A DNA stretch of 64,000 bases from Devosia riboflavina (GTDB taxonomy: Bacteria; Pseudomonadota; Alphaproteobacteria; Rhizobiales; Devosiaceae), in NCBI RefSeq assembly GCF_000743575.1, contig NZ_JQGC01000009.1, positions 124,001 to 188,000 on the forward strand, written 5' to 3'. A program made the translations under genes and the position numbers. Shown in pieces: positions 33,449-49,813 of the stretch. Below the pieces are notes generated by a model, which was not told the origin of the DNA, ran no database searches, and worked only from the letters and a program-made list of their open reading frames with translations. Each line of letters starts with the position of its first letter. Positions within the stretch are counted from its first letter, which is position 1.

Positions 33449-33462
33449 CACCACTTGACCGT

Positions 33463-33481
33463 CTGGTAACTTTCCTTACAG
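33463..33481. promoter_or_regulatory. Candidate ROK operator in the divergent promoter region
   Basis: CTGGTAACTTTCCTTACAG is a near-palindrome: CTGGTAA and TTACAG around CTTTCC, containing perfect GTAA-CTTTCC-TTAC. It lies between the ROK gene and the creatinase-like gene. ROK repressors often bind AT-rich palindromes with TTTCC/GGAAA cores, but the assignment is an inference. Confidence 0.4.
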
Positions 33482-33540
33482 TAATTAAGGTCTCATCTGA
33501 AACCGCTTGTCAAGAGACTGTCACAGGGTGGATGCAACCG

Positions 33541-34734
33541 ATGAAAACCAAACCCCCTTCGCCTTTCGACCGCGCCTATCACGGCCAGAGGATCCAGCAG
33601 GGCCGAGCGCTGATAGAGCAGCTCGGGCTAGAAGCGATCCTTGGCTTTTCAGCGCCTCGTGGCCTTGCGGCGGGAACGCGAACGAGCGGAAATCTGGGCT
33701 GGTTTGCCGGGTTCAGCCCGATCTGGGCGCCATCCCTACTGGTACTGACGGCGGGTCGGGCGACGATCGTCGCGCCCGGGAAGAACGAGGCGCGGCTCTT
33801 TTCGACCCGCGTGGGAACAGCGTTCGAGGTTATTGGCGCCGGACCGGACGGGATCATGGCGACGGCTTTGGAATTGCTTAGTGGGTACCAGCGCGTCGGT
33901 ACGGCGGGAGCTGATGAATTGCCGCCGCGCTTTGTTACTCAGCTTGCAGCGACCCTGCCCCAAGCCGTAGCCGTGGATGCCGAATTGCAGGCGCTGCGGC
34001 TGACACGGGCACCGATAGAAATCGACCTGCACCGTCGGGCCAGTGCCATTTCGGATGCCATGATCGAACGCGCCTTTGCCTATGCGGCAGAGCCCGGCGC
34101 GACGCCGGCCGGCCTCATGGCCGAGGTGGAGCACGAGGGGCGCCGGCATGGCGCCGATATCTCACGGCTCTGGCTTTCCACTGGTCCCAGGCCGCCGGTG
34201 ACCTATTTTGAAATGTTCGAATTGCCCGAGACGCTGGACCCCGGCGACCGGGTGCAACTCGGCACCATGGTTTCCTATGAGGGCTATTTTGCCCAGGGGT
34301 TGCGCATCGGCAGCATGGGGCCGGCTCGTGCAGCGCTGAAGGATGTCGTCGCGCGGATCGAGGCGATCCAGGACGATGCCCTGGCTCTGATGCGGCCAGG
34401 GCGTCCGGTGCATGAATTGGGCGATCTCATTGAAAGCCGGATTGACGCCATCTGCCCCTATTCGCGGCAAAGCGACCCGTTCCGCTTCCAGTCCTGCCAT
34501 GGTCTGGGGCTCGATTATTCCGAGCCCGGCCTTGCTGTCGCGCTCTCGCCGCAGCGCGATCGCAGTCTTGATGCCCATGGCCCGGTCTTCCAGCCGGGCA
34601 TGGTGTTTGAAATCCACCCCAATTTTTCGCTGCCCGAACTCGGCCATGTCTGCGCCGGGGATGTGGCTCTGGTCACCGAAACCGGGGCCGAATGGCTTAC
34701 CCGGTTCCCGCGCGGCGTCTATCCGATCATCTGA
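33541..34734 (+). CDS. M24 (pita-bread) family protein, creatinase-like, metal ligands lost
   Basis: A 397-residue protein with the two-domain layout of Xaa-Pro peptidase/creatinase: an N-terminal domain to about 150 and a pita-bread domain after it. Of the five metal ligands of M24 peptidases, H320 (SCHGLGLDYSEP) and E358 (FEIHPNF) remain. The two aspartates in the GDxVxxD...GYxxD stretch are G241 and Q252, and the last glutamate is G373. Metal-free catalysis as in creatinase is therefore likelier than peptidase activity. ATG 33541 is preferred over 33532 because AGGGTGG directly abuts the latter. Confidence 0.82.
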   Translation: MKTKPPSPFDRAYHGQRIQQGRALIEQLGLEAILGFSAPRGLAAGTRTSGNLGWFAGFSPIWAPSLLVLTAGRATIVAPGKNEARLFSTRVGTAFEVIGAGPDGIMATALELLSGYQRVGTAGADELPPRFVTQLAATLPQAVAVDAELQALRLTRAPIEIDLHRRASAISDAMIERAFAYAAEPGATPAGLMAEVEHEGRRHGADISRLWLSTGPRPPVTYFEMFELPETLDPGDRVQLGTMVSYEGYFAQGLRIGSMGPARAALKDVVARIEAIQDDALALMRPGRPVHELGDLIESRIDAICPYSRQSDPFRFQSCHGLGLDYSEPGLAVALSPQRDRSLDAHGPVFQPGMVFEIHPNFSLPELGHVCAGDVALVTETGAEWLTRFPRGVYPII

Positions 34735-34744
34735 AGGAGTTTTC

Positions 34745-35686
34745 ATGTACGCATTGATGCGCGGCAGCATTCCCAATGCCGGCAATGAGCCATTTGAAGT
34801 TCTCAAAAGGGCCGCGGCGCTGGGGGCTTCGGAAGTCACCTTCTATAGCCTTTTCGAACTGAGTTCGACGCTGGACAAGGGCGCTTTGGGCGAGCTCAAG
34901 GCCGAGGCGGACCGCCTTGGTATCGCTATTGGTGCGAGCCTTGACTGGCTCAATCCGCTCCGCCTCGATCGCCACGGGCGGGAACTGGAGCTAGGCCACG
35001 GGGAATTGTCGCGCGGCGTTGCAAGACTGCTCGAAACCGGGGCCAGCCTCGGCATGGCCGATATGTTCTTCACCATCGGGACGCTGGAGGACCGGGCGGG
35101 CAATTGGGCGGCGCAACTCGATGCCGTTGGTGCGCTGCTGGTGGGGCTTCGACCCAATCTTGCCGATCTCGGCATGCGGGCACTGGTCAAGACGCATGAG
35201 GAAATCACCTCCTATGAGTGCCTGGCTCTGATCGAGCGCGTCGGGGCCGACAGGCTCGGGGTGTCTTATGATCCGGTGAACATGCTGGTGCGGATCGAAG
35301 ACCCAATCGCGGCCGCAAAACGTCTCGCGCCGCATATCGCCCAGGTGCATGTGGACGATGCGATATTGCGGCCGGAAGAGCCCGGCTCCATCCGCCGCCA
35401 TCTCGTGCCGGCGGGCGAAGGCATCATCGACTGGGGCGCGATTTTCGCGCTTGTGCCCAAGGCCAAGCGGCTCATCGAACTGCATAATGGGCAATTCGCC
35501 ATGCCTGTCTTCGACACGGACTGGCTCAAATCCCAGCCCTATATCGACCTCTGCGAATATGCGGGGCTTGTCGGTAAAGCAGTTGGCAAGCGCGAACCGG
35601 AGGTTGCGGACCAAGGCAAAAACGGAGATCGTCTCGCAGCAGCGATAGGGATTTGCGGGGCGGCAATGGCGCGCCCCAAGCAGTGA
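34745..35686 (+). CDS. Second sugar isomerase/epimerase-like TIM-barrel protein
   Basis: A 313-residue xylose isomerase-like TIM barrel with ALVKTHEEITSYE, GVSYDPVNMLVRIEDPIAAAKRLAPH and AQVHVDDAIL, parallel to the protein encoded at 25852. AAGGAG lies six bases before ATG 34745, ten bases after the creatinase-like gene. The last 30 or so residues after GKAVGKREPEV look like a low-conservation tail. Probably acts on the same substrate pool as its paralogue. Confidence 0.8.
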   Translation: MYALMRGSIPNAGNEPFEVLKRAAALGASEVTFYSLFELSSTLDKGALGELKAEADRLGIAIGASLDWLNPLRLDRHGRELELGHGELSRGVARLLETGASLGMADMFFTIGTLEDRAGNWAAQLDAVGALLVGLRPNLADLGMRALVKTHEEITSYECLALIERVGADRLGVSYDPVNMLVRIEDPIAAAKRLAPHIAQVHVDDAILRPEEPGSIRRHLVPAGEGIIDWGAIFALVPKAKRLIELHNGQFAMPVFDTDWLKSQPYIDLCEYAGLVGKAVGKREPEVADQGKNGDRLAAAIGICGAAMARPKQ

Positions 35687-35703
35687 ACGGACAGGGATTT
35701 TTG

Positions 35704-36297
35704 ATGTCGCCACAGATACGTCAGGCACGCCCGGAAGACAGGGAAGCCCTCTTTTCGATCTGTCTGCTTACGGCGGATGGTGGGGCCGATGCTTCGGCCC
35801 TTTATTCGGACCCGGACTATCCGGGACTGGTGTGGTCGGTGCCCTATCTCGACTTTGCCCCCGACCATGCCTTTGTGCTGGAAGATGACGGCGCCGTCAT
35901 CGGCTATGTGGTCGGAACGACGGATACACAGGCCTTCGAACGGCGGCTCGACGCCGAGTGGTGGCCCATGCTGGCGGAGAAATATGCCGGACGCGAGGCG
36001 GCCACCAAACAGGACAAGAATGTGCTCGACCGCATCCGCCAGCCCAAGCATGGCAATGCCTCGATCTCGGATCGCTATCCCGCGCATCTCCACATCAACC
36101 TTTTGCCGCCGGCCCAATCGGGCGGCTGGGGCCGCAAGATGATCGAAGCCGAACTCGACTCGCTGCGGAAAGCCGACGCCAAGGCCATGCATCTCGGGCT
36201 CAGCCTGACCAATGACCGCGCCTATGGCTTTTACAAGCATATCGGGCTCAGCGAGATTGGCCGCGACGAGGCCATCTGGATGGGGATTACGCTCTAG
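35704..36297 (+). CDS. GNAT N-acetyltransferase, O-GlcNAcase-associated HAT-like
   Basis: A 197-residue GNAT. The core YPAHLHINLLPPAQSGGWGRKMIEAE holds the acetyl-CoA pyrophosphate loop, and LGLSLTNDRAYGFYKHIGL is the usual C-terminal half. The YPAHLHINLLP segment is characteristic of bacterial proteins resembling the C-terminal domain of human O-GlcNAcase. It follows the TIM-barrel gene by 17 bases. In a locus with a PIG-L deacetylase, an acetyltransferase on an amino sugar is plausible but unproven. Confidence 0.8.
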   Translation: MSPQIRQARPEDREALFSICLLTADGGADASALYSDPDYPGLVWSVPYLDFAPDHAFVLEDDGAVIGYVVGTTDTQAFERRLDAEWWPMLAEKYAGREAATKQDKNVLDRIRQPKHGNASISDRYPAHLHINLLPPAQSGGWGRKMIEAELDSLRKADAKAMHLGLSLTNDRAYGFYKHIGLSEIGRDEAIWMGITL

Positions 36298-36358: not shown

Positions 36359-37066
36359 ATGAGCAAAGCCGATGGTGGCCGCGTGTCGCGCGATCCATCG
36401 AAAAGCATCACCGTTGAAAAACTTCTCACGACCTGCGAGCGCCTGTTGCAGGCGGCGACGCATCCTGAGGAAGTCACGGTTCGCTCCATCACCCAGCATG
36501 CGGGAACGAGCCTCGGCGCCGTGAACTATCATTTCGGCAGCATGGAGCAGTTGATCTTTTCGGCCGGCGAACGGGTCTATCTCCGGCTCAATGCCGAACG
36601 GCTATCCCTGCTGCGCCACGCGGTCGAAAGATCCCATCCTGCCCCGGCGCAGGTGGAAGATCTCATCATTGCGCTGGTCGGTCCGTCCATACGCTGGAGC
36701 CTTGATCCACATTCCAGCTATAGCGTGTTGCGCCATATGACGACGATTGCCCAATCCAGCGACCATCCGGAAATTTTCCGGCCGATGATCGAGGACGTGG
36801 AGCACCACCGGCAGTTCATCCCGCAATTTCGCAGGGTTGCACCCTGGCTGAGCGAGGTGGAGATCGGCTTTCGCATGTCGTGCCTGTTGGGCGTGCGCAC
36901 GCAGATGACGCGCAATCGCCATCGCACGGACGAATTGACGAGCCACAGGCTCGATCTCACCGATCCTGACATTGTTCTCTCAGAGGTCGTGGCTGCCACG
37001 GCACCGATGTTCAAGCTGCGGCCATCGGGCGATTCATACAGCGTTCGAAACTCGTCACGCCACTGA
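36359..37066 (+). CDS. TetR-family transcriptional regulator
   Basis: A 235-residue TetR-type regulator with its HTH in VRSITQHAGTSLGAVNYHFGSMEQLI (about residues 40-65) and an all-helical ligand domain after it. The frame opens at 36212 inside the GNAT gene; ATG 36359 fits the family. It could control the upstream catabolic run or the phosphodiesterase gene 43 bases downstream. Confidence 0.85.
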   Translation: MSKADGGRVSRDPSKSITVEKLLTTCERLLQAATHPEEVTVRSITQHAGTSLGAVNYHFGSMEQLIFSAGERVYLRLNAERLSLLRHAVERSHPAPAQVEDLIIALVGPSIRWSLDPHSSYSVLRHMTTIAQSSDHPEIFRPMIEDVEHHRQFIPQFRRVAPWLSEVEIGFRMSCLLGVRTQMTRNRHRTDELTSHRLDLTDPDIVLSEVVAATAPMFKLRPSGDSYSVRNSSRH

Positions 37067-37109: not shown

Positions 37110-37961
37110 ATGTCCGAGACCATTTTCATCCACATTACCGATCTGCATGTGGGCAATCCGGCCGCGGCGGACGACCACCTTTTCAGCGACACTTCGGCGA
37201 CGCTGGCGCGCGTAATCGAGCTGATCGGCACGATGGACAAGAGGCCGGCCTTCATCGTCGCGAGCGGCGATCTCACCAATCGCGGCGACGTCGAAAGCTA
37301 TCGTCAGCTCAAGTCGATCATGGCGGCAACGGATTTGCCGGTGGTCTATGCCATCGGCAACCACGACACCCGGGCTGGCTTCTATGAAGGCATGTTCGAC
37401 CGTACGAGCGATCTCGACGCGCCTTATGACCATGAACAGGTCATCGACGGCATCCACATCATCACGCTCGACACGACGACACCGGGCCAGATCGGCGGGA
37501 GCCTGACGGGCGAACAGTTCGCCTGGCTGGCCCGCGCGCTCGACACACGTTCCGACCTTCCCAAGCTGATCGTCGCCCATCATGCGCCGGCGCTTGGCGA
37601 CGCGCCGCCCTGGGACCACTGGCGCACCATAGAGTTCGGCCAGTCCCAGGAATTGGCGAAGCTTCTCAAAGGACGCAACGTTCTCGGCATTCTCTCGGGC
37701 CATATCCACCACGACCGCTTTTCGGTCTGGCACGGGATCCCGGTCATTGTCGGCATGGGCCAGCACGCGGCTACCGACATTCTCACCACCGACATCCTGC
37801 GCATGGTCGAAGGCGCCTCCTTCGGGATCGGCACCATCCGCTCTTCCGGCCTCACCATGGCGCTCGTTCCGCTGCCCCAGACACGTCGCGAACTCAATCG
37901 CTACGACCTCTCCCTGCTGCGCCAGAAGCAGGAAGCGGCGCTGGCCGAAGCCACCAAGTAA
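37110..37961 (+). CDS. Metallophosphoesterase, CpdA/GpdQ-like phosphodiesterase (copy 1)
   Basis: A 283-residue class III phosphodiesterase with the full dinuclear metal set: HITDLHVG, ASGDLTNRG, GNHD, IVAHHAP and SGHIHHD. The family hydrolyses cyclic nucleotides or glycerophosphodiesters. It has no signal peptide, so it acts in the cytoplasm on imported material. A paralogue at 40832 shares long stretches (GNPA.ADDHL.SDT, GQHAATD.L). It heads the first copy of a phosphodiesterase/binding protein/phosphatase module. The ribosome-binding site AGGAGC sits in a small hairpin (37087-37105). Confidence 0.88.
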   Translation: MSETIFIHITDLHVGNPAAADDHLFSDTSATLARVIELIGTMDKRPAFIVASGDLTNRGDVESYRQLKSIMAATDLPVVYAIGNHDTRAGFYEGMFDRTSDLDAPYDHEQVIDGIHIITLDTTTPGQIGGSLTGEQFAWLARALDTRSDLPKLIVAHHAPALGDAPPWDHWRTIEFGQSQELAKLLKGRNVLGILSGHIHHDRFSVWHGIPVIVGMGQHAATDILTTDILRMVEGASFGIGTIRSSGLTMALVPLPQTRRELNRYDLSLLRQKQEAALAEATK

Positions 37962-37989
37962 TCCCCTCCTCCCAACAGGAACCCCCGCG

Positions 37990-39288
37990 ATGCAAAAGCG
38001 CACCTTCCTCAAGTTCATGGCTGCCGCCGCCCTTGGCGCCACCGCCATGACCGGCGTGGCCCACGCTGAAATGGCCACCGAAATCACCGAACCGGTGACC
38101 ATCACCTTCTATAACTACAACCTTGCCACCGCGAGCGCCGGGGCCGATGCCACCCGCGAAATGATCGCAAAATTCGAGGAAGAAAACCCGCTGATCACGG
38201 TGGAAACCGTCGGCGTGCCTTCCAACGAAATCATCACGCGCCTTCAGGCAGACATGGCCGCGGGCCTGCAGCCCGACGTGGCACAGCTGGTGTTCCGCGA
38301 TCTCATCTATCTTTCCACCGACCTCGGCGCACAGCCGCTGGAAGATATGGCGGGCGCGGCAGGCTATGCCGAACTGATCGACGGGCTCATTCCGCGCGGT
38401 GTTGATCTCGGCAAGGTCGACGGCAAGACCTATGGCCTTGCCTATACCTTCTCGACCCCGATCCTTTACTACAATGCCGACCTCTTCCGCGCAGCTGGTC
38501 TTGACCCGGAAAACCCGCCGAAAACCTGGGCCGAGGTGAAGACCGCCGCCGAGGCCATCGTCGAAAAGACCGACGCCGACGGCTTCTTCCCCGGCGCCTA
38601 TGGACCGGCCGATGGTACCTTCGTCTATCAGGGCATTCTCATGTCCAACGGCGGCAATGTCCGCGACGGCAACACGCTGACCTTCGCCAATGAAGAAGGC
38701 ATCGAGGCCGTGCAGATGCTGCGCGACATGGTCGATAGCGGCGCCCATGCCCGCCTCGACCCGGCCAATCCGCACGAGGCGTTCGCCGCCGGTAATCTGG
38801 GCATGTATCTCTATACGAGCGCCCTGCAGAACTCGCTTTCCAAGTCTGCCGAGGGCAATTGGGAACTGCGCGTTGCCGGCATGCCGGCCTTTGGCGACAA
38901 GCCGACCGCCCCCACCAATTCGGGCTCGGCGCTCTATGCCTTCTCGCAGGACCCGATCAAGCAGCGCGCCGCTTACGAGCTGATGAAGTTCCTGACTTCG
39001 GACTATGGCTACACCATCATCACCTCCAAGATCGGCTATCTGCCGCTGCGCCTCGACATCGTCGATGATCCGAACTTCCTCGGCCCCTGGACCGCTGAGC
39101 ACCCGCTGATCCGCCCGAACCTCGAACAGCTCTCGCGCCTGACGCCGAACGTTGCTTTTCCCGGCCAGAACTATCGCCAGGCCGAAGCCATGATGAAGGA
39201 AGCCGTCACGGAAGCCGTGCTCGGCACCGGCGACGTGGCCCAGACCCTGCTCGACGCGCAGGCCAATGCCCAGGGCTTGATGCCCTGA
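37990..39288 (+). CDS. ABC transporter substrate-binding protein, family 1 (copy 1)
   Basis: A 432-residue extracellular binding protein of family 1 (sugar/glycerol-phosphate type) with signal peptide (FLKFMAAAALGATAMTGVAHA). It is paralogous to the protein at 41731: both share VTITFYNYNLATA, GKTYGLAYTFSTP and YNADLFRAAGLDP. Features such as HPLIRPNLEQL recall UgpB. No permease or ATPase gene adjoins this copy; it may feed the transporter encoded at 43126-46757. Confidence 0.9.
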   Translation: MQKRTFLKFMAAAALGATAMTGVAHAEMATEITEPVTITFYNYNLATASAGADATREMIAKFEEENPLITVETVGVPSNEIITRLQADMAAGLQPDVAQLVFRDLIYLSTDLGAQPLEDMAGAAGYAELIDGLIPRGVDLGKVDGKTYGLAYTFSTPILYYNADLFRAAGLDPENPPKTWAEVKTAAEAIVEKTDADGFFPGAYGPADGTFVYQGILMSNGGNVRDGNTLTFANEEGIEAVQMLRDMVDSGAHARLDPANPHEAFAAGNLGMYLYTSALQNSLSKSAEGNWELRVAGMPAFGDKPTAPTNSGSALYAFSQDPIKQRAAYELMKFLTSDYGYTIITSKIGYLPLRLDIVDDPNFLGPWTAEHPLIRPNLEQLSRLTPNVAFPGQNYRQAEAMMKEAVTEAVLGTGDVAQTLLDAQANAQGLMP

Positions 39289-39298
39289 TTGCGACCGA

Positions 39299-39319
39299 GC
39301 GCGGCACTCTAGGCCGCGC
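39299..39319 (+). terminator. Hairpin after binding-protein copy 1
   Basis: GCGCGGC and GCCGCGC pair around a seven-base loop, followed by a pyrimidine-rich CCCTTTCGCTCTTT. It lies just after the stop and probably gives partial termination or mRNA stabilisation. Confidence 0.5.
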
Positions 39320-39370
39320 CCCTTTCGCTCTTTGAAAAATTCCAAAAGAACAAGAAGAATGGAGGCCGCC

Positions 39371-40105
39371 ATGACCCTGGCAGCGCCCCGTCATTGGCCC
39401 CTGCCTGACACCCACAATGTTCGCGACCTCGGCGGCTATGCCAGCAGGGTTGGCGGCACCACACAGTGGCGACGCATCCTGCGCGGCGAGGCTCTGCACC
39501 CCCTGACGGAGGACAGCCGCGCCGAGCTTGTCGATGGCAACCTGTCTCTAGTCATCGACCTGCGCGGCCCGCATGAAACCGGAATTGCCGCCCACCCCTT
39601 TGGCGATCACCCCTCGGTCGCCTATCGCAACATCGTTCTCTTCGATGCGCTGTCGCCGATTGCCATGGCGCAACAACCTTTCGATATGGCCGAGCGCTAT
39701 TGCGAGGCGCTGGATCGCTGCGGTGCAAGGTTTGCCGAAGTTTTTCGCGCCGTCATCGAGGCCAAGCCGGGGATCGTGCTGTTTCATTGCACGGCGGGTA
39801 AGGACCGTACTGGCGTCGTCGCGGCCATGCTGCTCGCGACATCCGGCGTCTCGCATGAGGACATCGCCGCCGACTATGCGCTGACCGCCTCGGCAGGCGG
39901 CCTGATCGACCATCTGCGCAATCGCGCGCTTGCGGCGGGCACCGATCCCCGCCTTGTCGAACGCATGCTGGCCAGCGACGCCGAGACGATGGAGGCTTTT
40001 CTGGCCTACCTCGACGGCGCCCATGGCGGCATCGAGGCCTATCTGCAAAAGATCGGCCTGACCGCCATCGAGATCACGGCGCTCAGGGATCGCCTATGCA
40101 CCTGA
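39371..40105 (+). CDS. PTP-like phosphatase (Y_phosphatase3, copy 1)
   Basis: A 244-residue cysteine phosphatase. The P-loop [11 protein letters not shown] gives the CX5R signature with C140 and R146, and the N-terminal TxNxRDLGGY is typical of PF13350 (relatives of M. tuberculosis PtpB, which hydrolyse phosphoproteins and phosphoinositides). GGAGG lies five bases before ATG 39371. It ends six bases before the convergent TetR stop. In this context a small phosphomonoester is a likelier substrate than protein. Confidence 0.88.
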   Translation: MTLAAPRHWPLPDTHNVRDLGGYASRVGGTTQWRRILRGEALHPLTEDSRAELVDGNLSLVIDLRGPHETGIAAHPFGDHPSVAYRNIVLFDALSPIAMAQQPFDMAERYCEALDRCGARFAEVFRAVIEAKPGIVLFHCTAGKDRTGVVAAMLLATSGVSHEDIAADYALTASAGGLIDHLRNRALAAGTDPRLVERMLASDAETMEAFLAYLDGAHGGIEAYLQKIGLTAIEITALRDRLCT

Positions 40106-40110
40106 TCCCG

Positions 40111-40680
40111 CTACGCGCGAACCGCAGCCCAGCACATGTCGGCCACCAGTTGCCGGTCCGCTGCCGGCAAAACTGTCTCGGTGAGACGGCGGCGTTTCAG
40201 CGTGTTGCGGATGGAGCCGCGCAGGAAGCTGGTGATCATGGTGGGCGTGCCTGCCCGCACCGCGCCTTCGGCCTGCGCCGCTTCGATCATGGCGATGCCG
40301 TGCAGCACGAAGGGACCGAAGACGGTCTTGGCGTCGTCGAGGCTGATCAGCGGGTTGTTGTCGAGATAGTCGAACAGCCGGGCGCGCTGGGCATCTTCCC
40401 AAATGAAGTCGATATAGCGCTCGATATAGCGGCCGACCTCTTCACGGGCGCTAAGCGAGGGATCGGGCGGCACCATCAGGCGCTCGGTCATCTCCGCGCT
40501 CACCTGCGTATAGACGCCCAGCACCAGTTCTTCCTTGCTCGCGAAATAATTATAGAGCGAGCCGGTCGCCACGCTGGCCTCTTCAGCGATCGCCGCCATC
40601 GAGCATTGCAGGCCATTGCGCACGATCAGCCGGGCGGCCGCTGCCAGAATGCGCTGACGCTTGTCGGGAACAACATCCAT
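40111..40680 (-). CDS. TetR-family repressor of the phosphodiester locus
   Basis: A 189-residue TetR protein with its HTH in SMAAIAEEASVATGSLYNYFASKEELV (about residues 28-53). It lies on the opposite strand between the two phosphodiesterase modules and is divergent from the second. A perfect 18-bp palindrome five bases before its start codon makes it a strong candidate to repress itself and the transport operon. The inducer is unknown but likely a phosphoester. Confidence 0.88.
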   Translation of the reverse strand: MDVVPDKRQRILAAAARLIVRNGLQCSMAAIAEEASVATGSLYNYFASKEELVLGVYTQVSAEMTERLMVPPDPSLSAREEVGRYIERYIDFIWEDAQRARLFDYLDNNPLISLDDAKTVFGPFVLHGIAMIEAAQAEGAVRAGTPTMITSFLRGSIRNTLKRRRLTETVLPAADRQLVADMCWAAVRA

Positions 40681-40684
40681 ATTC

Positions 40685-40702
40685 TGAATGAACCTTCATT
40701 CA
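40685..40702. promoter_or_regulatory. Perfect palindromic TetR operator
   Basis: TGAATGAA-CC-TTCATTCA reads the same on both arms over 18 bases. It sits between the tetR gene and the second phosphodiesterase gene and covers the tetR ribosome-binding region. The size and symmetry are typical of TetR operators. Confidence 0.75.
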
Positions 40703-40831
40703 CTTGTCATGGAGGAAAGGTAACTCTGCAGCCGTCGCCGCACAAGCCTTTTGTGCAAAAACTTTGACGAAACAGATAGTTACAGCGTTTTTGGCGCCTC
40801 CCCGCCATGCGCTAGAGCCAGGAGAACGCTC

Positions 40832-41704
40832 GTGTCCGAAACCGTCACTTTCGTGCATCTCACCGATTTGCATGTCGGCAATCCGGCCGTGGCCGATGAC
40901 CACCTCTATTCCGACACCACCACCACGCTCCGCCGCATTCTGGCCGATGTAAAGACGCTGGTGCCGCAGCCCAAATTCATCGTTGCCAGCGGCGACCTGA
41001 CCAATCGCGGCGACGAAGGTTCCTATGAAAACCTCAAGGCGCTGATCGCCGAAGCCGGCCTCGAAATGCCGATCCTCTTTGCCCTCGGCAATCATGACCG
41101 CCGCGATGGCTTCTATCCGGCCATGCTCGGCCAGACCGACAATCTTGATGCGCCCTATGACCACTCGGCTGTCATCGCCGGCATCCATGTCATCGTTCTT
41201 GACTCGAGCGTTCCCAACAAGGTTGGCGGCGCTTTCGAGCCGGGCCAGCTTGATTGGCTGAAGTCCGAACTCGCTGCCCATGCCGATCTGCCCAAGCTGC
41301 TGGTCATGCACCATGCCCCGGCCCTCGACACCACTGACGCGTCGATGGAGTGGGAATCGCTCGCCTATGCCGACACCGAAGCCCTCCGCGGCGCTGTCGC
41401 CGGCAAGAACGTCATCGGCATTCTGTCCGGCCACATCCACTATGACCGCGTCGCCAACTGGTATGGCATCCCGACCATTGTCGGCATCGGCCAGCACGCT
41501 GCCACCGACGTTCTCTGGCTCCATGAAGGTCTGCGCATGCTCGAAGGCGCTGCCTTTGCCATCGGCACGCTGCGTCCCTCCGGCCTTGCCATCACCTTCG
41601 CGCCGCAGGCTGCGACCCGTCGCGAACTGCACGGCTTCCGGTTCGCGGACATGGCCGAAATGCTCAAGAAATACGAAGCCGACACCGCGGCTGCGGCCGA
41701 ATAA
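40832..41704 (+). CDS. Metallophosphoesterase, CpdA/GpdQ-like phosphodiesterase (copy 2)
   Basis: A 290-residue class III phosphodiesterase with HLTDLHVG, ASGDLTNRG, GNHD, VMHHAPAL and SGHIHYD, clearly paralogous to the protein at 37110. The start is GTG 40832, seven bases after AGGAG. The frame is open to 40751 but without a domain there. It is the first gene of the operon that continues with a binding protein, two permeases, a phosphatase and an ATPase. Confidence 0.88.
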   Translation: MSETVTFVHLTDLHVGNPAVADDHLYSDTTTTLRRILADVKTLVPQPKFIVASGDLTNRGDEGSYENLKALIAEAGLEMPILFALGNHDRRDGFYPAMLGQTDNLDAPYDHSAVIAGIHVIVLDSSVPNKVGGAFEPGQLDWLKSELAAHADLPKLLVMHHAPALDTTDASMEWESLAYADTEALRGAVAGKNVIGILSGHIHYDRVANWYGIPTIVGIGQHAATDVLWLHEGLRMLEGAAFAIGTLRPSGLAITFAPQAATRRELHGFRFADMAEMLKKYEADTAAAAE

Positions 41705-41730
41705 CCCGCGAACGAGAGAAAGCTCCTCCC

Positions 41731-43020
41731 ATGTTCCGCACGACCATTCTTGCCAGCTTGCTGGCGCTCTCCGCCGCTGTGCCGGTACTGGCCCAGACCA
41801 TGGCGCCCACAATCGACCAGCCGGTCACCATCACCTTCTATAACTACAACCTCGCTACGGCCGGTCTCGGCGCCGAGGCCACGCAGAAGCTGATCAACGA
41901 ATTCATGGAAGCCAATCCCAACGTCACCGTTGAGGGTATCGGCTATTCCAGCGCCGACGCCAGCCGCATCCAGGCCGACCTCGCCGCCGGCCTGCCGGTC
42001 GATCTCGTCCAGACCGTGTTCTCCGATCTCGACTTCTCGGTGAACAATTTTGGCGCCCAGGCACTCGAAGACATCGCTCCGACCGACGAAATCACCGCGC
42101 ATATGTCGGGCATGCACCCCAATGGTACCAAGCTTGGCGTGCTCAACGGCAAGACCTATGGCCTCGCCTATACCTTCTCGACCCCGGTGCTGTTCTACAA
42201 TGCCGACCTCTTCCGCGCTGCGGGCCTCGATCCCGATGCCCCGCCCGCGACATGGGAAGCAGTGAAGGCCGCTGCCCTCGCCATCGAGGAAAAGACCGAT
42301 GCCGAAGGTTTTGCCGGCGGCATCACCGGTGTCGGTGCTGCCGACTGGCTCTTCCAGGGCGTCGTTCGCTCCAACAACGGTGAAGTCATCTCGCGCGATC
42401 GCACGACGCTGAAATTCGGCGAGCCGGAAGCCATCGAGGCCGTGACCATGCTGCGCGATCTCTATGATGCCGGCGTCTACGAAAACTACGACTTTGCCGG
42501 CGCCCTCGACGGCATGGCTTCGGGTCACCTCGGCATGTATCTCCAGACCAGCGCCCTGCAGGGTTCACTGGTGAAGGGCGCGGAAGGCAATTACGAGCTG
42601 CGCTCGGCCGCCATGCCGCGCTTTGGCGAAAAGCCGACGCGTCCGAACAATTCCGGTTCTGCCCTGACCATCCACACCACTGACCCGCTCAAGCAGCGCG
42701 CCGCCTGGGAACTGATGAAGTTCCTGACTTCCGAGCATGGCTACACCATCATCACCTCGGAAATCGGCTACCTGCCACTGCGTCCGGCCATCGTCACCGA
42801 TCCGAACTACCTCGCCGGCTGGATCGCCGAGCATCCGCTCGTCGCCCCAAATCTCGAACAGCTCGACCGTCTCGAGCCCTGGGATCCGATGCCGGGCCCG
42901 AACTACCGCCAGATCACTAAGACCCTGATGGACGCAGTTGAAATGGCGGTCTTCGGCGGCGCCGATGTCGCGGCAACCATGGCCGATGCACAGGCCAATG
43001 CCCAGGCATTGATGCCGTAA
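41731..43020 (+). CDS. ABC transporter substrate-binding protein, family 1 (copy 2)
   Basis: A 429-residue periplasmic binding protein with signal peptide (ILASLLALSAAVPVLAQ), 26 bases after the phosphodiesterase gene. It is paralogous to copy 1, with the same NYNLATA, GKTYGLAYTFSTP and HPLVAPNLEQL segments. It should deliver substrate to the permeases encoded next. A long stem-loop separates it from them. Confidence 0.92.
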   Translation: MFRTTILASLLALSAAVPVLAQTMAPTIDQPVTITFYNYNLATAGLGAEATQKLINEFMEANPNVTVEGIGYSSADASRIQADLAAGLPVDLVQTVFSDLDFSVNNFGAQALEDIAPTDEITAHMSGMHPNGTKLGVLNGKTYGLAYTFSTPVLFYNADLFRAAGLDPDAPPATWEAVKAAALAIEEKTDAEGFAGGITGVGAADWLFQGVVRSNNGEVISRDRTTLKFGEPEAIEAVTMLRDLYDAGVYENYDFAGALDGMASGHLGMYLQTSALQGSLVKGAEGNYELRSAAMPRFGEKPTRPNNSGSALTIHTTDPLKQRAAWELMKFLTSEHGYTIITSEIGYLPLRPAIVTDPNYLAGWIAEHPLVAPNLEQLDRLEPWDPMPGPNYRQITKTLMDAVEMAVFGGADVAATMADAQANAQALMP

Positions 43021-43025
43021 CCGCC

Positions 43026-43105
43026 TTGGCCCGCCGCATCCGTCCCGGTCGATGTCGTCCCTGCATCGACTGAAGCACACGGAGCGGCGGGCCAAACCCC
43101 TTTTT
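43026..43105 (+). terminator. Long stem-loop after binding-protein copy 2
   Basis: TTGGCCCGCCGC (43026-43037) pairs perfectly with GCGGCGGGCCAA (43084-43095). Inside it lie TCCGT/ACGGA and GTCGATG/CATCGAC stems. CCCCTTTTT follows. It is a likely partial terminator setting a higher binding-protein level than permease level. Confidence 0.75.
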
Positions 43106-43125
43106 CTGCAACTGGAGTGCGACAC

Positions 43126-44046
43126 ATGGCTCTCGCTTCCGCCGGCCCCACGCGCCTGAGGCGAATGACCCAGTCCCGCTGGGCACCCTGGCTCTATCTC
43201 TCGCCGGCCCTGATCACTCTCGTGGTCTGGATCTACTGGCCGCTGTTCGACGCGCTCCGGCTTAGCTTTTATCAGTGGAATATGCTGCCCACCTCGCCGC
43301 AGACCTTTGTCGGCTGGGAGAATTATGCGCGCATTTTCGCGCTACCGAAATTCTGGCAGGCCCTGCGCAACACCGGCGTCTATATCGTCGGCCTCCTGCC
43401 GCTGGCCGTGCTCATTCCGCTGGCCATAGCCATCTACACCCACGACCTGCCGGAAAAATCGCGAAACATCTATCGCGCCATCATCTTCGTGCCGATGATC
43501 ATTGCCCCCGTCGTTGCCGCCGCCGTCTGGCGCTGGCTGCTCGATCCCGGCTATGGCCTCGCCAATCAGATGCTGAAGGGGATCGGCCTCGACCCGGTCA
43601 AATTCCTTTCGGACCCCAAGATCGCCATCTGGACCGTGATCGTCATCACCGGCTGGAAGCTGATGGGCTTTTCAACGCTCATCCTTTCGGCGGCGAATGC
43701 GAATATCAATCCCTCGCTGGTGGAAGCCGCGCGCATGGACGGCGCGAGCAAGTGGGAAGTCATCCGCGACGTTCGCCTGCCGCTGCTTTCGTCCACCGTG
43801 CTGTTCCTGGTCGTCATGACAATCCTTCTCGGCGCGCAGTGGAGCTTTACCTATATCAACGTCCTGACCGGCGGCGGCCCGCTCGGCTCGACCACCAATA
43901 TCTACTACCTCCTCTGGGACTTTGGCTTCTCCACCATGTCGGTAGGCTGGGGCTCGGCCTCGGCAGTCATTCTCTTCCTCGGCTTCGGCGTCGTGGCCTT
44001 CGTGCTGTTCCGCCTGATCGACAGGTATTCCTTCCATGACAACTGA
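43126..44046 (+). CDS. ABC transporter permease, UgpA/MalF-like
   Basis: A 306-residue permease with six membrane segments. It begins at the first helix (APWLYLSPALITLVVWIYWPL) and carries the EAA loop VEAARMDGASKWEVIRDVRLPLL. It lacks the extra periplasmic domain of true MalF. GGAG lies eight bases before ATG 43126; a GTG at 43117 is in frame. It overlaps the next permease by 11 bases. Confidence 0.92.
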   Translation: MALASAGPTRLRRMTQSRWAPWLYLSPALITLVVWIYWPLFDALRLSFYQWNMLPTSPQTFVGWENYARIFALPKFWQALRNTGVYIVGLLPLAVLIPLAIAIYTHDLPEKSRNIYRAIIFVPMIIAPVVAAAVWRWLLDPGYGLANQMLKGIGLDPVKFLSDPKIAIWTVIVITGWKLMGFSTLILSAANANINPSLVEAARMDGASKWEVIRDVRLPLLSSTVLFLVVMTILLGAQWSFTYINVLTGGGPLGSTTNIYYLLWDFGFSTMSVGWGSASAVILFLGFGVVAFVLFRLIDRYSFHDN

Positions 44047-44902
44047 AGCTCTTGCGCGCCCCATGGCGCGCCCGCTCCGCCGCATTTCCGAGCGCTCCGG
44101 CCTCAACACCGCCGCCGGCCATGTGCTGATGGTGCTGCTATCGATTTTCTGCCTGTTCCCGGTCTACTGGATGCTCGCCAGCTCCTTCCGCCCGGCCAAT
44201 GCCATGTTCGAAACGAGCCTTTGGCCCACGACCATGTCGCTGGACAACTACACCCAGGCCGTCGATGCGATCCCGATCGCGCGCATGCTGTTCAACACGC
44301 TGGTCTTTTCGGCCCTCTCGACGGTGTTCCAGCTTCTTACGGGCATTCTGGCCGCCTTCGCCTTTGCGCGCTGGAAATTCCCGTTCGACAAGCTGGTCTA
44401 TACGGCGGTCGCCCTTACCTGGCTCGTGCCGTTTCAAGTGGTGATGATCCCCAACTACCTGCTCGTCGCGCAGATGGGTCTCCTCGACAACATCATCGCA
44501 CTGATCCTCCCCAACCTGGCCGCTGCCCTCGCGATTTTGCTTCTGGCACAGGCCATGCGCGGCTTTCCCAAGGAAGTCATGGAAGCCGCCCGCATGGACG
44601 GCGCCCGCAACTGGCGCATTCTCTGGGAAGTGCTGGTGCCGAACCTCCGCGGCACCATCGCCTCGCTCGCCATCCTCATCTTCATCTCGACCTGGAACGA
44701 ATATTTCTGGCCGCTGCTTCTCAGCCGCACCGCCGAAAACTCCGTCGTCCAGATCGGCATCCAGATGTTCATGACCGCCGAAGGCAACCAGTGGGGGCCG
44801 CTCATGGCCGCGTCCACGCTGGCCAGCCTTCCGGTCCTCCTCATCTACATCGTCCTGCAGCGCCAGGTCGTCCAATCCTTCATGAAATCCGGTATCCGCT
44901 GA
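44036..44902 (+). CDS. ABC transporter permease, UgpE/MalG-like
   Basis: A 288-residue permease of the MalG group with the EAA loop MEAARMDGARNWRILWEVLVPNLRG and about six helices. It forms the membrane channel with the preceding permease. Its stop overlaps the start of the phosphatase gene by one base, so all are translationally coupled. Confidence 0.93.
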   Translation: MTTEALARPMARPLRRISERSGLNTAAGHVLMVLLSIFCLFPVYWMLASSFRPANAMFETSLWPTTMSLDNYTQAVDAIPIARMLFNTLVFSALSTVFQLLTGILAAFAFARWKFPFDKLVYTAVALTWLVPFQVVMIPNYLLVAQMGLLDNIIALILPNLAAALAILLLAQAMRGFPKEVMEAARMDGARNWRILWEVLVPNLRGTIASLAILIFISTWNEYFWPLLLSRTAENSVVQIGIQMFMTAEGNQWGPLMAASTLASLPVLLIYIVLQRQVVQSFMKSGIR

Positions 44903-45633
44903 TGCACACCACCCGCCACCTGCCCATTCCCGGCACCCATAATGTCCGCGATCTCGGCGGCTATGCCACGGCGTCGGGCCCGACCCAGTTCCGCCGCCTG
45001 CTGCGCGCCGATGCGCTCCATCGCTTGGATGAAACCGGCGTTGCAACGCTGGTCGACACCGGCGTCACCACCGTCATCGACCTGCGCCACTCCGACGAAC
45101 TGGCCCACCAGCCCAACCCCTTCGCCGCACATGGCGCCGTGCGCTACCACAATGTCTCGCTGCTCGATGGCCTTGCGCCGAGCCTGATGACCGAAGGCGA
45201 CCTGCTGCTCGAACTCTATCAGCTCGCCCTCAGCCAGCGTCAGGGCGCCATCGCCCAAGTGCTTTCCCTCATCGCCGACGCGCCGACTGGCACGGTGCTG
45301 TTCCACTGCACCGCCGGCAAGGACCGCACCGGCATCATCGCCGCGCTCCTCCTCGGCATCGCCGGCGTCGAAGCCTCCGACATCGTCGACGACTACGCCC
45401 AGACCGCCGCCCTGATCGCGCCCATCGTTGCCGATATCACCGAAGGCGCCGTCGCCCGTGGCGCCGATCCGGAAAGTTTTAGGCGTCTCCTCGCCTCGGA
45501 GCCAGAAACCATGGTCGCGACCCTCGCCTTCATCGAGGCCGAGTTCGGCTCCGTCCCCGCCTATCTCGCCCTGATCGGCCTTGACGAGGCGGCAATCACC
45601 CGCCTGCGCAACCGTCTGCTTGGAGAAATCTGA
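44902..45633 (+). CDS. PTP-like phosphatase (Y_phosphatase3, copy 2)
   Basis: A 243-residue cysteine phosphatase with P-loop [11 protein letters not shown] (C136, R142) and [14 protein letters not shown] at the N terminus, paralogous to the protein at 39371. It lies inside the transporter operon between permease and ATPase genes, sharing single-base overlaps with both. Such a position implies it acts on the imported compound, probably removing phosphate after the diester is cut. Confidence 0.9.
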
Positions 45634-46757
45634 TGGCTGATCTTGCTATCACCGACGTCAAGAAATCCTATGACGGCAAGCCGGTGCTGCATGGCGTCGA
45701 TATTGCCATTCCCGATGGCCATTTCGTCGTCATCGTGGGCCCCTCGGGCTGCGGCAAATCTACTCTGCTGCGCATGATCGCTGGGCTTGAGGACATCACC
45801 TCGGGCACCATCAGCATCGGCGGCATCGAGATGAACGACATCGAGCCGTCGGATCGCGGCTGCGCCATGGTGTTTCAGAATTATGCGCTCTATCCGCATA
45901 TGACGGTGCGGCAGAACATTGCCTATCCCCTGCGCATCGCCAAGCTGCCGCAGAGCGAGCGCGATAGCCGCGTCGAGCAGGCGGCAAAAATTCTCAACCT
46001 GACGGATTATCTCGATCGTCGTCCGGCCCAGCTTTCGGGCGGCCAGCGCCAGCGCGTCGCCATGGGCCGCGCCATCGTCCGCGAGCCCGATGTGTTTCTC
46101 TTCGACGAGCCCCTGTCCAATCTCGACGCGCTGCTGCGCGTGCAGATGCGTATCGAAATCAAGAAACTGCACAAGCGCCTCAAGGCAACGTCCATCTTCG
46201 TGACCCACGATCAGGTTGAGGCCATGACACTGGCCGATACGTTGATCGTGATGAATGCCGGCCGTGTCGAACAGATCGGTTCGCCGTCCGAGATTTATCG
46301 CCGTCCGGCCTCGGTCTTCGTAGCCGGCTTCATGGGGGCTCCGGCGATGAACCTGCTGCCGGCGAAAGCCGATGCGGATGGTCTTGTCCGGCTCGACGGC
46401 GTTGCAGATGGCATTGCCATTGCCCAGGCGGACGTCGCCAAGGGCAGATTGCTGACAGTGGGCATTCGTCCCGAAAGCATCGTTCTCTCGACCGAGGTTG
46501 GTTCCGGCCTGCCGGCCACCGTCGATCTCGTCGAAGAGCTCGGCGGTTCGCGCGTCGCCTATTGCAATTTCGCCGGTCATGAAGTCGCCGTGGTGCTGCC
46601 GGCAGGCGACGAAAATATCGAGGGTTCGACGATCTGGCTGACCCTGCCGCAGAATGCGATCCATTGCTTTGATCGTGAAACCGGCCTGCGCTTGGCGAGA
46701 TCTACCCCGAACGGCAGGGTTTTGCGCGCAAAAAACCTGTCTGAAGCCGCGCCCTAG
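45633..46757 (+). CDS. ABC transporter ATPase, UgpC/MalK-like
   Basis: A 374-residue ATPase with Walker [10 protein letters not shown] (36-44), signature [19 protein letters not shown], Walker [17 protein letters not shown] and the H-loop VTHDQVEAM. The C-terminal OB-fold domain (about 240-374) is typical of the MalK/UgpC group. It energises the permeases encoded upstream and could also serve binding-protein copy 1. Confidence 0.94.
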
Positions 46758-47440: not shown

Positions 47441-49762
47441 ATGAGCCGATCACTTCGGCCGGCAGAGCACAAGCGTGCTCGCCTGGCTATAACTGCGCAC
47501 GCCTTGCTTTTGGCCACTGCGCTTATTTCCAGCCTTGCAACTGCAGGCGGCGCGCTGGCCCAGACCAGCGCGGCAGACCTTTCAAATACCCAGATTACGC
47601 TCCTCGAGCGGCTGGTCATTTCGGCGACGCGCCAGAGCAAGCGCCTGCTCGAAGTGCCGCAGACCATCACCGTGGTCACCCAGAACGATCTCGAAAATCG
47701 TGTCGTGCGCGATATGCAAGACCTCGTGCGCTATGAGCCGGGTGTGTCGGTCGATCGCCAGACCTCGATCACCAATCCCTGGGGCCAGCTCAACAGCTTT
47801 TCCATCCGCGGCATGGGCGGCAATCGCGTGCTGATGATGGTGGACGGCTCGCGCATCCAGGAACGCATCACCGACGGCAGCCGCGACTTCGTCGACACCT
47901 GGAATCTGCAGGCGGTCGAACTCGTGCGCGGCCCGAACTCGGTGCTCTGGGGCGCCGACGCGCTCGGCGGCACGGTCGCCATGCGCACCCGTGATCCCGC
48001 GGACCTGCTCGAAGGCCAGGACAAGAACTGGGCGCTGGAAGTGCGCACGGCCTTTGACAGCTACGACAATTCCTGGCGCAAGCAGGTCACCGGGGCCTAT
48101 GATTTTGGCGCCGTGCAGGTGCTCGGCAGTTTTGGGCACATTTCGTCCCAGGAGGCAAAGCTCACCAAGGGCGATCCCAATGGGGGTATCTGGGGCTGTC
48201 CTCGTCCGGCCAATTTCCGCTGCAACGCGCTCTTTCCTGCCGAAACCAGCGCTTACAATGCTCTCGTCAAGGTCGTGGCAACGCCAAACGAAGACCACAA
48301 GATCACGCTGACGGGCGAGTATTTCGACCGCAACACAGTCATCCAGCAGATCTGGGATTCGAGTGCGGCATTTGGCGGGTATACGAGCACGTCCTACCCA
48401 CGCACACTCGACATGGAACGCTATCGCCTTGCCATCGAGCACGAGTGGAACGTGGGGGCGAGCTGGCTCGATGCCGTCAAGTGGCAGGTCTCCTATTCTC
48501 CGCAGCGCCGCGTCACCAATTCGATCAATTACCGCACCTATCCCGGCCGCACCCAGCAGAACCATGCCCTGCGCGACTACGGTGAAACCTTCCTCGAGGC
48601 CGATCTGCAACTGACGTCGCTGTTCCAGGCGGGACCGACATTCCATACCCTTACCTATGGCTTTGATGGGGATTTCACCCAAAGCAATTACGAGGGCAAG
48701 GACCAGGTCTGGCGTTCCGACACTGGCTGGGGCAACCCGACTCCCAATGCCGGCTTTGCTTTCCCCAAGACCCAGACCATTCGCGCCGACTTCTTCATCC
48801 AGGATGAGATCAAGGCGCTCGATGACCGCCTGACCATCACGCCGGGCCTGCGGCTTGCCAATTACCGCATCGTCCCGGACGGCAGCTATGCAAGCCTGCC
48901 CGGCTTCACCCCCAAGCCGATCAACAGCACGGAACTGATCAAGAAGCTGTCGCTGCAATACCAGTTGACCGATGAGTTCTCGGTTTACGCGGCCTATGGC
49001 GAGGGCTTCAAGATGCCCAGCGCGCAGCAGCTTTTCCAGTCGAGCCGCTCGTCTGTCATGGCGCTGAACGACACGACCATCGTGCCCAATCTCAACCTAA
49101 AGCCTGAATCGGTCAGGAACTATGAGGTCGGGTTGCGAGGGGAATTCGAGCAGGGCTGGTTCTCGGTGTCCGGCTTCTATTCCCAGTACAGCAACTTCAT
49201 TCGCGGCTTCCAGCCGACCCCGACCGCTGTACTCAATCCGGCAACGGGCGTTTGGTCCCATATCTGGTCGGACAATGTCGAAGCCGTTGACCTCTATGGC
49301 ATCGAAATTGGCGCGGAATATGAATTCTACGAAAACATCTTCGCCAGCGCCAACCTGACCTGGCAGCGCGGTACCCAGCGTGTCAGTGCCGGCGCCGCGA
49401 CGACGCCCTTCGACGGTGCGGTACCGCTGACCGCGGTTCTGGGCCTGCGCTACGAAATTCCCGAACATGGGCTCGAACTCGAGCTTATCGGCACGCTCGC
49501 CGCCGGACCGACCGAACGCTCGGACCCGAATGCCTTCAAGCCGGGCGGCTATGCCCTCCTCGATGGCTATGTCACCTGGAAGCCGACCGAAAATGTGGAA
49601 GTCAATTTCGGCGTCCAGAACATCTTCGATACCCGCTACTTCCCGAACACGCTGACCGGTTACGCGAACACCGCAGGCTCGGACGTCGCCGGCGTCAATC
49701 CGCTCGAAGGACAGGTCGGGCCCGGACGGACGTTCAAGGTCGGCACCACGGTGCGCTTCTAA
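47441..49762 (+). CDS. TonB-dependent hemoglobin/transferrin-type receptor
   Basis: A 773-residue outer-membrane receptor with signal peptide (about residues 1-41), plug domain (LEVPQTITVVTQNDLENR; SIRGMGGNRVLMMVDGSR) and a 22-strand barrel ending in a C-terminal Phe (VGTTVRF). The FRAP-like box reads GFKMPSAQQLF and is followed by NLKPESVRNYEVG, as in heme/hemoglobin receptors. It heads the heme operon. The 200-base upstream region has TATAAT at 47345 but no iron box I can name. Confidence 0.88.
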   Translation: MSRSLRPAEHKRARLAITAHALLLATALISSLATAGGALAQTSAADLSNTQITLLERLVISATRQSKRLLEVPQTITVVTQNDLENRVVRDMQDLVRYEPGVSVDRQTSITNPWGQLNSFSIRGMGGNRVLMMVDGSRIQERITDGSRDFVDTWNLQAVELVRGPNSVLWGADALGGTVAMRTRDPADLLEGQDKNWALEVRTAFDSYDNSWRKQVTGAYDFGAVQVLGSFGHISSQEAKLTKGDPNGGIWGCPRPANFRCNALFPAETSAYNALVKVVATPNEDHKITLTGEYFDRNTVIQQIWDSSAAFGGYTSTSYPRTLDMERYRLAIEHEWNVGASWLDAVKWQVSYSPQRRVTNSINYRTYPGRTQQNHALRDYGETFLEADLQLTSLFQAGPTFHTLTYGFDGDFTQSNYEGKDQVWRSDTGWGNPTPNAGFAFPKTQTIRADFFIQDEIKALDDRLTITPGLRLANYRIVPDGSYASLPGFTPKPINSTELIKKLSLQYQLTDEFSVYAAYGEGFKMPSAQQLFQSSRSSVMALNDTTIVPNLNLKPESVRNYEVGLRGEFEQGWFSVSGFYSQYSNFIRGFQPTPTAVLNPATGVWSHIWSDNVEAVDLYGIEIGAEYEFYENIFASANLTWQRGTQRVSAGAATTPFDGAVPLTAVLGLRYEIPEHGLELELIGTLAAGPTERSDPNAFKPGGYALLDGYVTWKPTENVEVNFGVQNIFDTRYFPNTLTGYANTAGSDVAGVNPLEGQVGPGRTFKVGTTVRF

Positions 49763-49813
49763 GGCACTCGAAAGGGACGCCCAAGGGCGTCCCACCTTCT
49801 CTCGGAGCAGACG

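What the first reader, a model, noticed from the sequence alone, without database searches (positions are those of the whole stretch)
37110..46757. Duplicated phosphodiesterase/binding protein/PTP-like phosphatase module with one ABC importer
Seen: the gene order metallophosphodiesterase, family 1 binding protein, CX5R phosphatase occurs twice (37110-40105 and 40832-45633), and the three proteins of each set are clear paralogues. The second set also carries two Ugp/Mal-type permeases and an ATPase, with the phosphatase gene inserted between permease and ATPase by one-base overlaps. Known: Ugp-type importers take up glycerol-phosphate compounds, GpdQ/CpdA relatives cut phosphodiesters, and PF13350 phosphatases can act on phosphoinositides. 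Inference: the locus imports a phosphodiester (glycerophosphodiester, perhaps glycerophosphoinositol, or a nucleotide diester), cuts it and removes phosphate. I know of no described system with this combination.
Basis: partly seen in the sequence, partly recalled or inferred. Interest (0 to 1): 0.75.

Follow-up and report, generated by a model that had tools for sequence, protein, structure and literature searches.

The report
Phosphodiester import-and-digest gene cassette
A soil bacterium carries a conserved, sometimes mobile set of genes that most likely imports an unidentified phosphorus-linked nutrient whole and cuts it apart inside the cell with two enzymes; its ingredients are known, but this combination and its nutrient appear uncharacterised.

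Summary
In detail: two sets of PF00149 diesterase, CUT1 binding protein (SBP) and PF13350 phosphatase, 51/59/46% identical, with one Ugp-like importer and one-base overlaps around PTP2. It is not a recent tandem duplication: trees put the two sets in separate lineages, each with its own TetR type. Two loci elsewhere keep only SBP1 beside type 2 permeases, so SBP1 probably uses the shared importer. The gene set recurs, partly reordered, in several phyla and as likely transposon cargo; in some Rhodobacterales the enzyme pair follows an Opp-type importer. The SBPs keep three of four UgpB phosphate contacts but not its glycerol clamp, and the genome has a separate ugpBAECQ. Best reading: import of an intact, probably non-glycerol phosphodiester, cytoplasmic cleavage, then phosphate removal. 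The substrate is unknown; glycerophosphoinositol has no direct support. The logic matches Ugp-UgpQ and the agrocinopine acc operon: a new variant of a known kind.

The parts
36359..37066 (+). TetR-family regulator type 1 (TetR_N + TetR_C_30)
   Evidence: Pfam; heads type 1 modules also in L029, L053, L102, L122
37110..37961 (+). PDE1, PF00149 metallophosphodiesterase; no signal peptide apparent by eye
37990..39288 (+). SBP1, CUT1 solute-binding protein with N-terminal signal-like segment (by eye)
39371..40105 (+). PTP1, PF13350 CX5R phosphatase ([10 protein letters not shown])
40111..40680 (-). TetR-family regulator type 2, divergent from PDE2
   Evidence: TetR_N; conserved beside PDE2
40685..40702 (.). 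Probable TetR2 operator, palindrome TGAATGAACCTTCATTCA
40832..41704 (+). PDE2, PF00149 metallophosphodiesterase
41731..43020 (+). SBP2, CUT1 solute-binding protein
43126..44046 (+). PermA, UgpA-like permease
44036..44902 (+). PermB, UgpE-like permease (overlaps PermA by 11 bases)
44902..45633 (+). PTP2, PF13350 CX5R phosphatase, one-base overlaps with PermB and ATPase
45633..46757 (+). UgpC/MalK-type ATPase
   Evidence: NF008653 518.6 bits, cut-off 432

Best explanation
A TetR-controlled uptake and catabolism cassette for an organic phosphodiester. Two periplasmic binding proteins capture the diester and deliver it to one Ugp-like ABC importer. In the cytoplasm a metallophosphodiesterase (PDE1 or PDE2) cuts it into an alcohol and a phosphomonoester, and a PF13350 phosphatase removes phosphate from that monoester. 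The ligand is probably not glycerol-based; a sugar or polyol phosphodiester is my first guess. The SBP-PDE pairs are the exchangeable specificity parts. Shown by sequence: gene content, conservation, an SBP signature like that of phosphate-ligand binders, intact catalytic motifs, a conserved operator-like palindrome. Inferred: importer sharing, order of reactions, cytoplasmic location, substrate class. The confidence given is for import and cleavage of some phosphodiester; the first two rivals below differ from it only in the substrate.
For: Families and intact motifs. SBP-anchored genome loci: PDE in 13 of 13, PTP in 12 of 13 (4 of the 13 are the same contigs as loci). PTP-anchored: 26 of the 80 loci kept have a PDE plus a Ugp-type importer (21) or plus two adjacent ATPase genes as in the annotated Opp-type loci (5). 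SBP-anchored on plasmids: 11 of the 16 loci read have both enzymes. The same set with other gene orders in Actinomycetota plasmids. The PDE beside a related SBP is a YmdB-type enzyme in Thermus, so a diesterase is kept while its subfamily changes. In the PTP tree starred branches force at least 3 label changes, gains or losses, for PTPs of Ugp-type modules. Positions S150, T/S273 and Y347 in 20 of 20 module SBPs of A2, against 4 of 26 other CUT1 SBPs of the genome, three of which group with UgpB. No PDE or PTP within 1.5 kb of the 28 other SBP loci sampled from the genome. Deletions in L020 and L053 leave SBP1 with type 2 permeases. Operator-like palindrome. MurR/RpiR regulators with a SIS domain in actinobacterial modules fit a sugar-phosphate inducer (inference).
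Confidence: 0.66

Rival explanations
1. The ligand is a short nucleic-acid fragment or cyclic nucleotide (dinucleotide, 2',3'-cNMP): the PDE linearises or splits it and the phosphatase gives nucleosides.
Against: SpdA and CpdA scores are far under their cut-offs (400, 225). I noticed no nucleosidase or nucleoside kinase gene inside the annotated module operons read; no dedicated search was made. The dinucleotide binder is 22% identical, no closer than UgpB at 17-21%.
Confidence: 0.14
2. Glycerophosphodiester or glycerophosphoinositol uptake: diester in, glycerol phosphate or inositol phosphate out, then phosphate removed.
Against: The glycerol contact Glu88 and the Trp188/191 clamp of UgpB are absent (against PMC12718374). 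The genome has ugpBAECQ. I noticed no inositol gene in the annotated neighbourhoods read.
Confidence: 0.12
3. A plain sugar importer whose PDE and phosphatase are regulatory (cyclic nucleotide and phosphoprotein turnover).
For: The top SBP fold match binds a cyclic oligosaccharide; named PDE relatives degrade cAMP; PF13350 enzymes are annotated as tyrosine phosphatases.
Against: The two enzymes stay together through reordering and through a change of importer type; the SBP carries most of the phosphate contacts; set 1 and the L115 repeat contain SBP and PDE together.
Confidence: 0.08

Closest known systems
UgpBAEC + UgpQ (glycerol-3-phosphate and glycerophosphodiester uptake, E. coli K-12)
   Same: CUT1 importer with UgpC-subfamily ATPase; phosphodiesterase encoded with the importer; three of four UgpB phosphate contacts aligned in the SBP.
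   Different: PF00149 diesterase instead of a GDPD; extra PF13350 phosphatase; glycerol clamp absent; UgpB, UgpA and UgpE equivalog cut-offs not reached; the genome has a separate ugpBAECQ.
acc operon for agrocinopine (AccABCDE importer, AccF phosphodiesterase, AccG putative phosphatase; PMC4526662, passages read)
   Same: Same logic: import of an intact sugar phosphodiester, cytoplasmic diesterase, then phosphatase. That AccABCDE is an Opp-type importer, like the second architecture found here, is recalled.
   Different: Importer type in the window and regulators differ; AccF and AccG were not compared by sequence here.
Phosphate-starvation-induced PDE/SBP/ATPase set MED193_11288, 11293, 11308 of Phaeobacter (PMC10132767, table rows read)
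   Same: A predicted phosphodiesterase, a sugar SBP and a sugar ATPase with nearby locus tags, all induced under phosphate depletion.
   Different: No phosphatase listed among them; sequences not compared, homology not tested.
Xanthosan uptake, XanT-XanP of Xanthomonas (PMC12807533, abstract and passages read)
   Same: Uptake of a sugar phosphodiester followed by a dedicated phosphodiesterase.
   Different: TonB-dependent transporter and 2H-phosphoesterase as named in the paper, not the families found here; no sequences compared.
Thermus dinucleotide-binding SBP (7c0f and mutants)
   Same: Phosphodiester-binding CUT1 SBP; its S127 and T240, which carry mutant entries, align with S150 and T273 of SBP2 (my reading of the printed alignment).
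   Different: 22% identity; its Y56 has no counterpart in the module SBPs by the same alignment.

Membership tests
Ugp glycerol-3-phosphate importer | SBP reaches the UgpB equivalog cut-off | tested here: not met
   68.8 and 59 bits, cut-off 411
Ugp glycerol-3-phosphate importer | Phosphate contacts Tyr64, Ser143, Ser266, Tyr342 (PMC12718374) | tested here: inconclusive
   three of four aligned positions kept (S150, T/S273, Y347), Tyr64 not; Ser266 register unsure by one
Ugp glycerol-3-phosphate importer | Glycerol contacts Glu88 and Trp188/Trp191 | tested here: not met
   alignment with E. coli and Sulfitobacter UgpB
Ugp glycerol-3-phosphate importer | UgpC subfamily ATPase | tested here: met
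   518.6 bits, cut-off 432
Ugp glycerol-3-phosphate importer | Partner diesterase is a GDPD (UgpQ) | tested here: not met
   the diesterases are PF00149
SpdA / CpdA cyclic nucleotide phosphodiesterases | Equivalog cut-offs (400; 225) | tested here: not met
   90.2 and 82.3; 72.2 and 67.1 bits
PF00149 calcineurin-like phosphoesterases | Gathering score and metal-binding motifs | tested here: met
   D12, H14, D55, N87, H88, H160, H161, H201, H203 invariant in 22 rows (their metal role is recalled)
PF13350 Y_phosphatase3 | Gathering score and CX5R loop | tested here: met
   184.9 and 197.9 bits (cut-off 22.2); HCTAGKDR and the following G144 invariant in 18 rows
PF13350 Y_phosphatase3 | Phosphoinositide or phosphotyrosine activity | not testable with these tools
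   needs an assay
acc (agrocinopine) operon | Importer + phosphodiesterase + phosphatase encoded together | tested here: met
   as logic, not as homology
acc (agrocinopine) operon | AccA-type SBP binding a pyranose-2-phosphate motif | not tested
   AccA was not fetched; the window SBPs are CUT1 by Pfam and fold

The most novel reading that the evidence does not exclude
A widespread, horizontally moving catabolic cassette for an undescribed class of sugar or polyol phosphodiesters (opine-like nutrients) in soil, plant-associated and marine bacteria, in which binding protein-diesterase pairs are swapped or added on one shared importer to change what is eaten.
Probability: 0.3. Interest if true: 0.8.

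Novelty: new variant of a known kind. Interest (0 to 1): 0.58.

Why it matters
It points to a so far unnamed pool of organic phosphorus that bacteria of several phyla may take up whole. It gives a gene signature (this SBP subfamily with a PF00149 and a PF13350 gene) for finding users of that pool, and it offers PF13350 phosphatases a metabolic role beside their recalled signalling and virulence roles. The two-set Devosia locus gives a direct test of whether SBP-diesterase pairs act as exchangeable specificity parts.

Tried and rejected
Glycerophosphoinositol: a literature search (15 of 21 papers listed, titles and abstract starts seen) showed no bacterial importer of this kind. Pho box: 7 matches with up to 3 mismatches in the window against 3.18 expected (1 of 100 shuffles had as many); those in the cassette all have 3 mismatches, so nothing is claimed (consensus recalled). 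Type 1 operator: no palindrome shared by the 11 type 1 loci looked at; only L029, L132 and L133 share TTTCGAACANCATTCGAAA before PDE1. Substrate from neighbours: L033 has an FGGY kinase and a class II aldolase gene after the PTP, L055 a LacI regulator and an L-fucose isomerase hit below its cut-off, L085 a phosphoribosyltransferase-domain gene, L098 ugp genes; they differ from locus to locus. Fold comparison cannot separate ligand classes. Literature on the combination: searches found 0 papers; others (20 of 54 listed; 10 of 251; 4 of 4; 1 of 1; 12 of 12; 15 of 312) showed none that I recognised as describing it; (12 of 26 listed) led to the Phaeobacter set.

Rows dropped: searches gave 14 genomes besides the own one; 13 were fetched, and G015 was not, because its contig has the length of L034, already held, where the module is present in pieces. 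Four of the 13 (L111, L116, L117, L118) have contig lengths equal to L021, L020, L015 and L019. PTP tree: left out L001-L014, L099, L105-L114, L117-L119, L124, hits under 80 bits or 150 residues; it is a quick tree, the careful one did not finish; L123 is labelled there as lacking a PDE although one search shows one. SBP and PermA trees: left out L001-L014, L019, L034, L111-L114, L117-L119, L124, and L116 from the SBP tree only, as well as short or low-scoring rows; the PermA tree has none of L126-L135; quick method, with long branches flagged for UgpB and L134. No PDE tree was made. Background SBPs: 30 of 41 SBP_bac_8 matches fetched, 2 of them the module's own, 2 (L146, L162) not aligned, 26 compared. 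The L122 SBP was dropped (I took a wrong frame). Plasmid SBP hits: 31 records, 16 loci read, 3 of them without annotation. The order and class draws share some genomes.
Full report
What is there. The window lies in a genome related to Devosia (closest named loci are Devosia; placement). The cassette runs TetR1-PDE1-SBP1-PTP1, then a divergent TetR2, then PDE2-SBP2-PermA-PermB-PTP2-ATPase. The PDE, SBP, PTP, permease and ATPase domain calls named here exceed their Pfam cut-offs. The paralogues are 51% (PDE), 59% (SBP) and 46% (PTP) identical. By eye neither kind of enzyme has a signal peptide while both SBPs begin with a signal-like segment, so the enzymes are taken to act in the cytoplasm (inference). 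Catalytic motifs are intact and invariant among 22 PDEs and 18 PTPs.

Is the association real? Anchored on the SBP, 13 loci outside the window were fetched after genome searches: 13 of 13 have a PF00149 gene and 12 of 13 a PF13350 gene (the L123 PDE by Pfam; L122 lacks the PTP). Four of the 13 are contigs already, and a fourteenth genome, G015, was not refetched. On plasmids, 16 of 31 records with an SBP hit were read: 11 have both enzymes, L129 has the PTP and a PDE beyond an IS element, L131, L134 and L135 a PDE only, L130 neither. Anchored on the PTP, of the 80 best loci kept, 21 have the Ugp-type module with a PDE and 5 have a PDE after two adjacent ATPase genes; L085 is cut off at PermA. 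As background, 28 other SBP loci of the same genome show neither enzyme within 1.5 kb. The cassette is patchy: at E <= 1e-50 the SBP is in 5 of 397 genomes of the order, 2 of 385 of the class and 11 of 81 relatives, the own genome counted each time.

Spread. The order PDE-SBP-PermA-PermB-PTP(-ATPase) occurs in Devosia, Rhizobium, Pararhizobium, Agrobacterium, Microvirga and Rhodobacterales, in MAG contigs labelled Anaerolineae and Pleurocapsa, and in Massiliimalia (Bacillota). In three Actinomycetota plasmids the same genes are reordered. In two Sulfitobacter/Pseudosulfitobacter plasmids the cassette lies between TniB/Mu-type transposase genes, so it is probably transposon cargo. In several Rhodobacterales plasmids the PDE-PTP pair follows an Opp/Dpp-type importer instead (families of L097). 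In Thermus the SBP relative has a YmdB-type PDE.

Not a fresh duplication. In the SBP tree, SBP1 falls in a clade (SH-aLRT 100) with the type 1 loci L029, L102, L122, L132 and L133, and SBP2 in another (95). PTP1 and PTP2 are likewise in separate starred groups. Each lineage has its own TetR type. L029, L102 and L122 have their own permease clade. In L020 (D. psychrophila; L116 is the same sequence) and L053 (Rhizobium Leaf306) only SBP1 remains, next to type 2 permeases, which argues that SBP1 can feed the shared importer. L115 and L121 carry an extra SBP2 (and L115 an extra PDE2) on one importer. So SBP-PDE pairs look like exchangeable parts (inference). L118 and L034 show broken reading frames in the module; sequencing error is not excluded.

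Regulation. TGAATGAANNTTCATTCA lies between TetR2 and PDE2 in the window and occurs exactly in 22 distinct outside loci (14, 8 more after setting aside 3 that repeat contigs), and with one mismatch in L034. It is absent in L020, L026 and L096, which do have TetR2. In the own genome it is the only site with fewer than 3 mismatches. In L134 a 2-mismatch version lies between the divergent PDE and SBP genes.

Mechanism. I commit to: diester captured by SBP1 or SBP2, imported whole, cut by PDE1 or PDE2, and the monoester stripped of phosphate by PTP1 or PTP2. A dedicated phosphatase makes most sense if the monoester is unusual, as arabinose-2-phosphate is in the acc system (PMC4526662, passages). 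MurR/RpiR regulators in actinobacterial modules, with a SIS domain confirmed in L127, fit a phosphosugar signal (inference from the family). Against a single clear substrate, neighbours differ: sugar-type genes in L033, a phosphoribosyltransferase-domain gene in L085, ugp genes in L098. A Phaeobacter set of similar make-up is induced by phosphate starvation (PMC10132767 table rows), but its homology was not tested.

Verdict. A real, conserved, probably mobile cassette, most likely for phosphodiester use; a new variant of the Ugp/acc kind with unknown substrate.

Noticed in passing
window 47441-51589: A TonB-dependent receptor gene is followed by an SbmA/BacA-like ABC transporter gene (PF06472 + PF05992 + ABC_tran), a possible peptide or cofactor uptake pair.
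   Followed up: no
window 32258-36297: ROK-family repressor, M24 peptidase, xylose-isomerase-like TIM barrel and GNAT genes lie upstream of the cassette.
   Followed up: no
L100 and L101: The cassette sits between TniB/Mu-type transposase genes on Sulfitobacter and Pseudosulfitobacter plasmids, suggesting transposon cargo.
   Followed up: partly
L115 7763-11345; L121 8552-11237: Tandem SBP2 copies (and in L115 a second PDE2) on one importer.
   Followed up: partly
L045 2-3733: A Chloroflexota MAG contig carries five consecutive PF13350-like reading frames in tandem.
   Followed up: no
L118 and L034: The two-set locus shows several broken reading frames, either decay or sequencing error.
   Followed up: no
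L029 5858, L132 4911, L133 4980: Palindrome TTTCGAACANCATTCGAAA before PDE1 in rhizobial type 1 loci, a possible operator of the type 1 TetR.
   Followed up: no
L129 1-8374: In a Dietzia plasmid an IS21 element lies between a metallophosphoesterase/MurR gene pair and the rest of the module, suggesting that an insertion split it.
   Followed up: no
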